49,314 bases of DNA from an uncultured Kiloniella sp. Lineage in GTDB: Bacteria > Pseudomonadota > Alphaproteobacteria > Kiloniellales > Kiloniellaceae. The notes under the pieces were generated by a model. That model was not told the origin of the DNA and ran no database searches. It saw only the letters and a program-made list of their open reading frames with translations. The position numbers and the translations under genes are program-made. Positions 45,708-49,314 of the stretch are shown here, piece after piece. Position 1 is the stretch's first letter. Every line of letters begins with the position of its first letter. The stretch is from assembly GCF_937128705.1 (NCBI RefSeq), contig NZ_CAKZMP010000081.1, forward strand, positions 1 through 49,314, written 5' to 3'.

Positions 45708-47978
45708 ATGCTGAAAACAATCACACAGAAACAATTAAACTTTTCGATTAAACAACAATTTATCAGGGGGCTATTGGCTGCCTCTATAATTGTTATGGGC
45801 ATAGGTCCCTCGGTTGCAAATGGACTGGTGTCCCCAAATGACATGAAAAGAGGCTCGTTGTTATTGAAAACAACGGAAGCCGGTAAAATGGTCGAAGCCA
45901 TTCAGCTTGCAACCAATGTAGAGATTGACATCAACGGACCGATTGCCCGAACGAAAGTCACCCAACGCTTTAGAAACCCTTCTGATGGCTGGGTTGAAGG
46001 AACCTATGTTTTTCCTCTTCCTGAAACATCAGCTGTAGATACACTCAAAATGCAAATCGGTGATCGTTTCATCGAAGGCATTATCAAGCCCAAAGAAGAG
46101 GCTCGAAAAATTTATGATGACGCCAAAAGAGAAGGCAAAAAAGCCAGTTTGGTTGAACAGTTACGCCCCAATCTCTTTACCAACTCGGTCGCAAATATAG
46201 GGCCGCAAGAAATCATCGTTGTACAGATTGAATATCAAGAAACGGTCAGGCAATCGAATGGTCTTTTCTCGCTCCGTTTCCCAATGGTTGCAGCCCCCCG
46301 CTACAACCCAAAGCCACGCATTGTCGAAAGTGTAAATTTTGAGAATGATGAACAGTGGGGAACAGTAAAAGATTCCGTTCCGGATCGTGAAGAGATAACG
46401 TCTCCAGTAATAAATCCGGCAAGACAAGCACAAAGCAATCCGGTGTCTTTGAATGTCAACTTGGCTTCCGGCTTCCCCATTGCTGAAATCAAAAGCCCGT
46501 TCCACAACATTATTACAGACTATAAATCCAAAGATCAGGTTGAAGTCTCTCTCAGTGATCAAGTCGTCCCTGCAGATCGCGATTTTGAACTAAACTGGAA
46601 AGCCGAACCAAAAAAATCTCCCCGCGTAGCCCTATTTAAGGAAACAATTGGTCAAGATGACTATTTCCTTGCCTTTGTTACTCCCCCCAAACTGGCTCAA
46701 CTTGCTCAGGATGAAATAACAACACCAGACAGGGAAGTTATCTTTGTTATTGATAACTCAGGCTCTATGGCTGGCCCTTCTATGAGACAGGCAAAGGAAA
46801 GCTTGCTTTTAGCTCTTGCAAAGTTGAGCGATCAGGATCGCTTTAACGTCATAAGATTCGATGACACCTACGAAGTCCTTTTCCCTTCAGCTCTTGAAGC
46901 CAATACTGGCAATCTTGATATCGCAAAAAGATTTGTCTCATCTCTCGAAGCTGATGGCGGAACAGAAATGTTACCTGCGCTGGAAGCCGCCTTGGAAGAC
47001 CAAACCCCGCACGAAAAATCGACTTTACGCCAGATTGTATTCTTGACGGATGGTGCCATTGGCAATGAAAAACAAATGTTTGATACCATTGTAAAAAAAC
47101 GTGGTCGTTCCAGAATCTTTACCGTCGGTATTGGTTCTGCCCCCAACAGTCACTTTATGAACCGCGCATCCAGCTACGGCAAAGGAACCTTTACCCATAT
47201 CGGATCAGAACAACAAGTCAGATCCCGTATGAACGAACTATTTACAAAGCTTGAAACCCCGGTGTTAACCGATCTTCAGGCAAACTGGCCAGAAAGTAAT
47301 CAACCCGAGAAAAACAATGTAGAAATGAGCCCACGTCACCTCCCCGATCTCTACAGTGGTGAGCCCGTCGTTATCTTGGCTAAAGCCAAAAATACGGTTC
47401 GATCAGTCAAAGAAACACTGGATGTTTCTGGCCAGTTCTCAAACCAACCCTGGACAATTAAATTACCGCTCCACAAAGCACAGCAAGGCAATGGTATTGG
47501 CAAACTATGGGGCAGAAAGAGAATTTCAGAAATAGAAGGACAGTACTTTCAGGCCGATAATTGGAATGTGCTTGATCAATACATACTCAATACAGCTATG
47601 AAATACGGCCTAATCAGCAAAATGACGAGCCTTGTCGCAGTTGATATCACCCCGACGCGGCCAACTGGTACAGATTACAATAGTCAGAAGATAGCGTTAA
47701 ACCTTCCTGCTGGTTGGGATTTTGAGAAAGTCTTTGGGCCTGATTACACTTCGGCTCCAGAACAACTTGAAAATGCCAGCATTTCATCCCTGCATGCCTT
47801 AGCTGCAAGTGATACCCCCTTGGCAAATCTAGCCTCTGCAAAAGCTAAATCCATTCCCTTACCTGCAACAGCAACAACAGCGGAATTAAAAATCATTCTT
47901 GGTATTCTTCTGTTACTGGCAACGGTATTCTTTATGCTGGTCTCCCGTAAAATGCTTCTAAATGGACAGCGTCCATAG
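45708..47978 (+). CDS. Marine proteobacterial sortase target protein, VIT and VWA domains
   Basis: This is an envelope protein of 756 residues. Order of parts: signal peptide (about 1-38), VIT domain (about 40-200, with VEGTYVFPLPETSAVDTLKM and LVEQLRPNLFTNSVANIGPQE), VWA domain (about 340-520) with a complete MIDAS start VFVIDNSGSM and LTDGAIGNE, a linker, and a C-terminal sorting signal: LPATAT (in PLPATATTAEL), a hydrophobic helix and basic SRKMLLNGQRP. The sorting signal fits the family recognised beside class GN sortases, usually the only sortase substrate in its genome. The sortase gene starts 2 bases after its stop, but is truncated here. Confidence 0.94.
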   Translation: MLKTITQKQLNFSIKQQFIRGLLAASIIVMGIGPSVANGLVSPNDMKRGSLLLKTTEAGKMVEAIQLATNVEIDINGPIARTKVTQRFRNPSDGWVEGTYVFPLPETSAVDTLKMQIGDRFIEGIIKPKEEARKIYDDAKREGKKASLVEQLRPNLFTNSVANIGPQEIIVVQIEYQETVRQSNGLFSLRFPMVAAPRYNPKPRIVESVNFENDEQWGTVKDSVPDREEITSPVINPARQAQSNPVSLNVNLASGFPIAEIKSPFHNIITDYKSKDQVEVSLSDQVVPADRDFELNWKAEPKKSPRVALFKETIGQDDYFLAFVTPPKLAQLAQDEITTPDREVIFVIDNSGSMAGPSMRQAKESLLLALAKLSDQDRFNVIRFDDTYEVLFPSALEANTGNLDIAKRFVSSLEADGGTEMLPALEAALEDQTPHEKSTLRQIVFLTDGAIGNEKQMFDTIVKKRGRSRIFTVGIGSAPNSHFMNRASSYGKGTFTHIGSEQQVRSRMNELFTKLETPVLTDLQANWPESNQPEKNNVEMSPRHLPDLYSGEPVVILAKAKNTVRSVKETLDVSGQFSNQPWTIKLPLHKAQQGNGIGKLWGRKRISEIEGQYFQADNWNVLDQYILNTAMKYGLISKMTSLVAVDITPTRPTGTDYNSQKIALNLPAGWDFEKVFGPDYTSAPEQLENASISSLHALAASDTPLANLASAKAKSIPLPATATTAELKIILGILLLLATVFFMLVSRKMLLNGQRP

Positions 47979-47980
47979 CC

Positions 47981-48353
47981 ATGAAAACCTCTAGTACTAT
48001 AAAGCCTACCTTACAAATACGAAGACCCTTTCAGAGGCCCCCTCAACATCTGGTAAGAGGAGTGAGAAAGCTCCTCTTACTCGCATTATTCATGGCTGGG
48101 TTTGCCCTGATCGGGGATGGTCTCTACATCAAATTAAAAGCCGTTCTGGCGCAACACCTGTTACAACAGGCCTGGCAGGAAACCTTAACCACCCAGACAC
48201 CACAAAGAGCATGGTCATGGGCCGATACATATCCTGTCGCAGAAATCAGCCTTCCCGATCTGGCTATAGATCCTGTAATCGCCTTACGCGGCAGTAGCGG
48301 CGAGGCCTTGGCATTCGCCCCCGGTCATTTGGAGAACACTGCCCGCCCCGGTC
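47981..48353 (+). pseudogene. Class GN sortase, 3' part lost
   Basis: The frame begins 2 bases after the VIT/VWA gene. It has a basic N-terminus, one membrane helix (about 29-48, LLLLALFMAGFALIGDGLY) and the family region WSWADTYPVAEISLPDLAIDPVIALRGSSGEALAFAPGHLENTARPGQ (about 85-124). Family members continue here into a Gly-rich stretch with His and later the catalytic TLxTC Cys and Arg. Instead, the frame reads unrelated sequence from about 48350 and stops at 48430 (149 codons in all). No other frame resumes the sortase, so this is a truncation and not a simple frameshift. It should be inactive. Confidence 0.82.
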
Positions 48354-48356
48354 AGC

Positions 48357-48509
48357 ATGTTCCTCAACCCCGCTGCCGCAATAGTCTATCCTCAGCCAGC
48401 CCAAGCAGTGCTGACGACTTACTGGGATGAGCCGGAGAAATTCGAGCAGATGAACCGTGAGTTGAAAAAGTTCATTCGCAAAGTCGAAGATGAAGGAATT
48501 CACGAGTAG
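48357..48509 (+). CDS. Small ORF at the element junction
   Basis: It has 50 residues, MFLNPAAAIVYPQPAQAVL to KVEDEGIHE. The second half is a charged helix (DEPEKFEQMNRELKKFIRK). The ATG lies within 10 bases of the point where sortase similarity ends, and there is no binding site, since upstream bases are sortase sequence. It may therefore be the remaining C-terminus of a longer phage protein whose start is at the other end of the element, rather than a complete gene. No family is recognised. Confidence 0.5.
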   Translation: MFLNPAAAIVYPQPAQAVLTTYWDEPEKFEQMNRELKKFIRKVEDEGIHE

Positions 48510-48533
48510 CGACCAAATAACGCGCATTGCGTG

Positions 48534-48542
48534 TGTTATAGT
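48534..48542 (+). promoter_or_regulatory. Extended -10 promoter element of the phage-like cluster
   Basis: TGTTATAGT matches the extended -10 pattern TGn-TATAAT with one mismatch. It lies 52 bases before the first well-supported small gene (48594), in the only sizeable gap of the cluster. No clear -35 is seen, which an extended -10 does not require. Confidence 0.5.
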
Positions 48543-48593
48543 AAAGTTGCCTAAATTTCAACCAGTGATACAATCAAGAAAACAGGAGGCGTT

Positions 48594-48797
48594 ATGAAAT
48601 CAATACTTGCAACTGCTATCAAAGCTGGACTGGTGTACATGATTCGAAATTATGCCGCCTCACTGGTGTTTGACATGATTGTTGAGCAGGCCGAAAAGCT
48701 CTCACGTCGCACTGATACTGACATCGACGATAAGGCTGTGGCCATGCTGAAAAACGACAAGAGCGACTTCATAGCAGCCATCAAGGGCAGAATCTAA
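48594..48797 (+). CDS. Small phage-like membrane protein
   Basis: It has 67 residues with AGGAGG 5 bases before the ATG. The N-terminal half (MKSILATAIKAGLVYMIRNYAASLVFDMIV) is a likely amphipathic or membrane helix, and the second half is charged and polar (SRRTDTDIDDKAVAMLKNDKSDF). Small virion-associated or accessory membrane proteins of tailless phages look like this, but I recognise no specific family and assign no function. Confidence 0.75.
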   Translation: MKSILATAIKAGLVYMIRNYAASLVFDMIVEQAEKLSRRTDTDIDDKAVAMLKNDKSDFIAAIKGRI

Positions 48798-48825
48798 TTA
48801 AAGCCAAACTTAAAGGTGTGGAATT

Positions 48826-49041
48826 ATGAGTTCAAAACTACTTAAAGATGCAACACAAGAAGAGCTTCTTGCTGAATTGATTGAGCGCTCTGGAGGTCTT
48901 AGTCAAGCTCCTGATACTATTCGCTATTGCAGTACCATGCGAGAAGCGCTAGTTGGGATTGGTTATGATGAAACAGCTAGTATTTTCTTAGATCAAGAAT
49001 CATACGAAGCGTTAGTTGATATTGTCGGGGCTGATAAATGA
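48826..49041 (+). CDS. Small phage-like soluble protein
   Basis: It has 71 residues (MSSKLLKDATQEELLAELIERSGGLSQ...). It is mostly helical and acidic, without Cys pairs or membrane segment. GGTGTGGAATT precedes the ATG, with a weak binding site 28 bases after the previous gene. Its stop overlaps the next start (ATGA at 49038-49041), so the two are likely translationally coupled. No family is recognised. Confidence 0.72.
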   Translation: MSSKLLKDATQEELLAELIERSGGLSQAPDTIRYCSTMREALVGIGYDETASIFLDQESYEALVDIVGADK

Positions 49042-49151
49042 AAACCAAAGCGAAAGCAACAAGTTACAAGCCGAAGAAGCCGAAGAAGAAAGCCAAAAAG
49101 GTCGCGGGCGGTTTTGACTACAACATCACAAAGCGACGGAAGTCAGCATGA
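49038..49151 (+). CDS. Very basic 37-residue protein
   Basis: MKTKAKATSYKPKKPKK... to NITKRRKSA has 16 Lys/Arg in 37 residues, no acidic residue except one Asp, and no hydrophobic segment, which suggests nucleic-acid or membrane-phosphate binding. Small phages carry comparable basic proteins for genome condensation or packaging. It overlaps the genes on both sides by 4 bases (ATGA), strong support that it is translated despite its size. Confidence 0.7.
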   Translation: MKTKAKATSYKPKKPKKKAKKVAGGFDYNITKRRKSA

Positions 49152-49314
49152 TTTTACTCTTCGCGGTCATTGCGCTGGTTATATTCATATTCACCGCCAA
49201 GAGACTGGCTCTCGTATCATTTATAGCGTTTTTCATTGCACAATTCATATCGACGCGAAGTGTAGTGACGTTCAGCTATGAGGCTGCTGTAATCAGCATG
49301 ATGATTCTGAACTT
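49148..49314 (+). CDS. Hydrophobic protein, 3' end outside window
   Basis: Open to the window edge with 55 complete codons: MILLFAVIALVIFIFTAKRLALVSF..., with two or three membrane helices (about 1-16, 20-35 and from ~44). It starts inside the previous gene's stop (ATGA), so it is probably translationally coupled. It could be a membrane protein of a phage virion or a holin-like protein; the length is unknown and I assign no function. Confidence 0.65.
   Translation, partial: MILLFAVIALVIFIFTAKRLALVSFIAFFIAQFISTRSVVTFSYEAAVISMMILN

What the first reader, a model, noticed from the sequence alone, without database searches (positions are those of the whole stretch)
48350..49314. Probable undescribed small phage-like element of short, mostly coupled ORFs
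Five frames of 37-71 codons follow in a row, two of them joined to the next by ATGA overlaps: a charged fragment, a membrane-helix protein, a soluble acidic protein, a 37-residue Lys/Arg-rich protein and a multi-helix protein. A cluster of this style with basic and membrane proteins recalls tailless membrane-containing phages (corticovirus or tectivirus type) or filamentous phages, which integrate in marine bacteria. I recognise none of the five, so the element may be novel. The rest lies outside the window.
Basis: inference. Interest (0 to 1): 0.7.

Follow-up and report, generated by a model that had tools for sequence, protein, structure and literature searches.

The report
Tailed-phage fragment at contig end
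The run of tiny genes at the end of this marine Kiloniella contig is a 0.96-kb piece of a P22-like tailed phage, from the stretch just before its DNA-packaging genes, joined to a broken host sortase gene; it is not a new tailless or filamentous virus, and the join may be an assembly artefact.

Summary
The five short, partly ATGA-coupled ORFs are real (97% ORF coverage against 29% in shuffles; mostly synonymous divergence from relatives). 'Phage' is right, but the proposed type is wrong. Three environmental phage contigs carry close relatives of the 37-aa basic protein and of the last ORF, which is really the start of a 149-aa membrane protein; one also carries the 67-aa protein (94% identity), another the acidic 71-aa protein. 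A fourth, more distant contig repeats the order 67-37-149. Downstream in these phages come another small membrane protein, terminases and mostly a P22-type portal, with NinB/NinG upstream: the gene order of P22-like tailed phages. The nearest cultured phages, by large terminase (61%), infect Vibrio lentus. The host is Kiloniella. Its class GN sortase gene breaks off at 48356; the gene's end starts contig C170, and about 152 bp lie in neither. No other part of this phage was found in the 97.5%-complete genome, and close relatives show no tyrosine integrase. Whether the join is a true insertion or an assembly chimera is unresolved; I slightly favour chimera. Ordinary: a new member of a known kind.

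The parts
45708..47978 (+). Host gene: marine proteobacterial sortase target protein (VIT + VWA), 756 aa
   Evidence: TIGR03788, 1.6e-243; 92% identical in Kiloniella majae
47981..48356 (+). Host gene: class GN sortase, 5' part only; homology stops at 48356/48357
   Evidence: TIGR03784 positions 2-90 of 174; alignment with seven Kiloniella loci ends at 48357; remaining C-terminal part at G000:C170:8-97
48357..48509 (+). 50-codon frame starting at the junction; possible truncated phage gene, no convincing relative
48594..48797 (+). Phage late-region small protein, 67 aa (net charge +2)
   Evidence: 94% aa identity to IMGVR_UViG_3300007276_000191, 55% to L147, 32% to L023; phrog_2738 4.3e-6
48826..49041 (+). 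Acidic phage protein, 71 aa (net charge -8)
   Evidence: 53% over 64 aa to the 74-aa protein in the same gene cluster of IMGVR_UViG_3300006467_000144, E 3e-21
49038..49151 (+). Basic phage protein, 37 aa (net charge +14), ATGA-coupled on both sides
   Evidence: 43-89% identity to 37-aa proteins in four phage contigs
49148..49314 (+). N-terminal 55 codons of a 149-aa multi-helix membrane protein; runs off the contig
   Evidence: 91-96% identity to three phage contigs; a full-length relative has 3 hydrophobic segments, five helices predicted at low confidence

Best explanation
Positions 48357-49314 are a fragment of a P22-like short-tailed dsDNA phage (Caudoviricetes), namely the small late genes between the NinB/NinG recombination genes and the terminase genes, the place where P22 carries its lysis cassette. 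Shown: homology, gene order in relatives and coding character. Inferred: the 149-aa multi-helix protein and the 75-aa helix-plus-charged-tail protein that follows it in relatives are membrane proteins of the lysis step (holin or spanin type), translated by stop/start coupling with the small basic 37-aa protein. The join to the Kiloniella sortase gene at 48356/48357 is either an assembly chimera (slightly favoured) or a real insertion whose remainder was not assembled or binned. The confidence given is for the phage identity, not for the lysis role (about 0.5).
For: DNA identity 85% over 48547-48808 and 82% over 49038-49314 with L004, 91% over 49038-49314 with L048. In L004 the order is 67 aa, 37 aa, 149 aa, 75 aa, small terminase candidate (phrog_9747), large terminase (phrog_3717 4.1e-22), portal (phrog_156; P22_portal 1.8e-96) with NinB and NinG upstream. 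L048/G063 has 74 aa (relative of ORF71), 77 aa, 37 aa, 149 aa, 74 aa, small terminase candidate, large terminase (phrog_38), P22 portal and tailed-phage major head protein phrog_283. L147 repeats 67-37-149-terminase-portal. The large terminase of L004 is 61% identical to that of Vibrio lentus phage 1.039.O, whose record is annotated with P22-like portal, coat and tailspike N-terminus.
Against: Only 958 bp are visible; no structural gene of this phage is in the window, and phages recombine: the large terminases next to this cassette differ among relatives. The lysis role rests on position and hydropathy; no lysis family matched.
Confidence: 0.93

Rival explanations
1. About the join: it is a true insertion. 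A P22-like prophage or stranded phage genome disrupts the class GN sortase gene of this Kiloniella, and the rest of the phage and about 152 bp of sortase were not assembled or binned.
For: Sortase homology breaks cleanly at 48356/48357 inside one continuous contig; the same gene's end starts contig C170; seven of eight other same-genus genomes have it intact, so the interruption is particular to this genome.
Against: No integrase PF00589 in the relatives G001, G062 or G063, while the same search rang in G000 and G002; no other match to G001 or to the first 20 kb of G063 in G000, and the only P22-portal hit in G000 lies in an unrelated phage contig; the missing 152 bp were not found; no shared core longer than chance at the junction; no relative of the 149-aa protein in 288 other genomes.
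Confidence: 0.4
2. About the join: it is an assembly or library chimera. DNA of a free or co-sampled phage was joined to the end of a host contig that broke in the sortase gene.
For: The rest of the phage was not found in a 97.5% complete assembly; the close relatives lack a tyrosine integrase; the assembly of 442 contigs also holds a fragment of a different, N4-like phage (contig C272), so DNA of a non-lysogenic phage was probably in the sample; the two host contig ends lie 152 bp apart and C170 carries no phage sequence.
Against: No read data to show it; no shared sequence longer than chance that would mislead an assembler was found, though the exact phage is unknown.
Confidence: 0.55
3. A tailless membrane-containing phage (corticovirus or tectivirus type) or a filamentous phage.
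For: Small basic and membrane proteins in a row.
Against: The nearest relatives carry terminase, P22 portal and a tailed-phage head protein in 30-39 kb contigs.
Confidence: 0.02

Closest known systems
IMGVR_UViG_3300007276_000191 (30.5 kb uncultivated phage contig; L004, G001)
   Same: 67-aa, 37-aa and 149-aa genes in order, 82-85% DNA identity
   Different: Lacks the acidic 71-aa gene; different sequence upstream of the 67-aa gene, with a tRNA-Arg
IMGVR_UViG_3300006467_000144 (38.7 kb; L048, G063)
   Same: 74-aa relative of the acidic protein, 37-aa and 149-aa genes; 91% DNA identity over 49038-49314
   Different: A different 77-aa protein instead of the 67-aa one, placed after the acidic protein; large terminase of another family than G001
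Vibrio lentus phage 1.039.O and kin (MG592423)
   Same: P22-like module order; large terminase 61% identical to that of L004
   Different: No detectable relative of the 71-, 149- or 75-aa proteins in its record or in the phage collection; only weak cyanophage-type matches to the 67-aa protein there
Phage P22 (from general knowledge)
   Same: Order nin genes, lysis genes, small terminase, large terminase, portal
   Different: The small proteins here match no lysis family by profile

Membership tests
P22-like podophage (Caudoviricetes) | P22-type portal and large terminase downstream of this cassette | tested here: met
   Met in relatives G001, G063 and L147; lies outside the contig for this element itself
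P22-like podophage (Caudoviricetes) | NinB/NinG recombination genes upstream of the late genes | tested here: met
   Met in relatives: G001, G063 NinB; not visible in the window, where host sequence lies instead
P22-like podophage (Caudoviricetes) | Tailed-phage coat protein and short tail | tested here: inconclusive
   phrog_283 major head protein in G063; most tail genes not profiled; none visible in the window
Integrated prophage | Integrase and two attachment junctions | tested here: inconclusive
   No PF00589 in close relatives; right junction and most of the element not found in the assembly
Corticovirus / tectivirus | Double jelly-roll capsid and FtsK-like packaging ATPase | not tested
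   No specific search made; relatives instead carry terminase, portal and a tailed-phage head protein
Filamentous phage | Zot-type ATPase and small ssDNA genome | not tested
   No specific search made; relatives are 30-39 kb with terminase genes

The most novel reading that the evidence does not exclude
A P22-like phage lineage without a recognisable integrase is truly inserted in the class GN sortase gene of Kiloniella, which would be a phage-host link for this genus and would imply an unrecognised mode of integration or a stranded phage genome.
Probability: 0.25. Interest if true: 0.4.

Novelty: new member of a known kind. Interest (0 to 1): 0.15.

Why it matters
It removes a candidate novel virus type and replaces it with a conserved small-gene cassette of uncultivated P22-like phages. 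It also warns that the apparent sortase loss in this Kiloniella genome should not be taken as biology without read support. If the insertion is real, it links this phage group with Kiloniella.

Tried and rejected
Pfam and NCBIfam gave nothing usable for the small proteins. Nucleotide searches of plasmid and phage records with 48357-49314 found nothing. The 50-codon frame at 48357 found no relative in viral contigs and only weak partial matches in phages. A whole-genome-collection search for the 67-aa protein found nothing. Cyanophage matches to the 67-aa protein are weak and lie in a different gene neighbourhood, so they were not used. The structure model of the 149-aa protein is too uncertain for a fold search (pLDDT 57.5). 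A literature search found no paper on a Kiloniella phage by title. The portal hit on contig C272 was considered as the missing part of this phage and rejected: it shows no protein similarity to the relatives and is N4-like.

Full report
What is there. The window is the whole of contig C81 of a 4.47-Mb, 442-contig genome, so 49314 is the contig's end. The five + strand frames are as described, with ATGA overlaps at 49038-49041 and 49148-49151. They are far denser than in dinucleotide shuffles (97% coverage against 29%; 0 of 1000 shuffles reach it). Codon comparison with relatives shows mostly synonymous change for the 67-aa frame and the last frame, so these are real genes; the 71-aa and 37-aa frames are supported by protein identity and conserved position.

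Host side. Upstream lie the marine sortase target protein (TIGR03788) and a class GN sortase gene (TIGR03784). The target protein is 88-92% identical in four named Kiloniella genomes, which names the host genus. Sortase homology stops at 48356/48357. The end of the sortase gene starts contig C170, and about 152 bp between the two were found in no contig. Seven of eight other genomes of the genus have an intact sortase; the eighth is 77% complete.

Phage side. The 67-aa protein is 94% identical to one in a 30.5-kb IMG/VR contig. DNA identity is 82-85% over two blocks, interrupted by the 71-aa gene. The last frame is the start of a 149-aa protein, its 55 codons 91-96% identical in three IMG/VR contigs. 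In a fourth contig, found through the next gene downstream, the order 67-37-149 recurs at 43-55% identity. The acidic 71-aa protein has a 53% relative in G063. Downstream in these phages are a further small membrane protein, a small terminase candidate and the large terminase, then a P22-type portal in G001, G063 and L147; NinB lies upstream in G001 and G063, NinG in G001 by profile and in G063 by sequence, and DnaB-, Erf- and YqaJ-like genes farther upstream, these last by inspection only. The large terminase of G001 is 61% identical to that of Vibrio lentus phage 1.039.O, a tailed phage annotated with P22-like portal, coat and tailspike N-terminus.

Function. In P22 (general knowledge) the genes between the nin region and the small terminase gene include the lysis cassette. 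The endolysin candidate of these phages (a peptidase-like 156-aa protein, by inspection) lies elsewhere, after the putative tailspike gene. The 149-aa protein has at least three hydrophobic segments and the 75-aa protein one, with a charged C-terminal part. I infer holin or spanin roles; no profile supports this. The 37-aa protein (+14) may bind nucleic acid or membrane; this is inference.

How it is joined. For a real insertion: continuity of the contig and a clean break. For a chimera: no other part of G001 or of the first 20 kb of G063 in the genome; the only P22-portal hit is in contig C272, an unrelated N4-like phage fragment; no tyrosine integrase in G001, G062 or G063; no shared core beyond chance at the junction; no relative of the 149-aa protein in 288 other genomes searched. 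The relatives are fragments and only part of G063 was compared by DNA, so absence is not complete. I put chimera at 0.55 and insertion at 0.4.

Verdict. Phage yes; novel small virus no. It is an ordinary tailed-phage fragment at a contig end.

Noticed in passing
G000 contig C272 (L137:1-7923): Fragment of an N4-like phage in the same assembly: portal phrog_1216 8.6e-225, 55% to Sinorhizobium phage ort11; major head protein; amidase. Its presence bears on whether the assembly holds free phage DNA.
   Followed up: partly
L004:6977-9599, L047:1077-2995, L138:7410-8903: The 37-149-75 gene cassette is 77-92% conserved between three phages, yet the large terminase just downstream belongs to different families (phrog_3717, phrog_38 and a third, unprofiled type), suggesting terminase exchange at this boundary.
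   Followed up: no
L023:2027-4451: A more distant contig has a 32% relative of the 67-aa protein next to a peptidase-like endolysin candidate and a tyrosine integrase, so temperate relatives of this small gene exist.
   Followed up: partly
L004:4009-4900: A tRNA-Arg (TCT) and about 800 bases without long ORFs lie upstream of the 67-aa gene in G001, a possible attachment or regulatory region.
   Followed up: no
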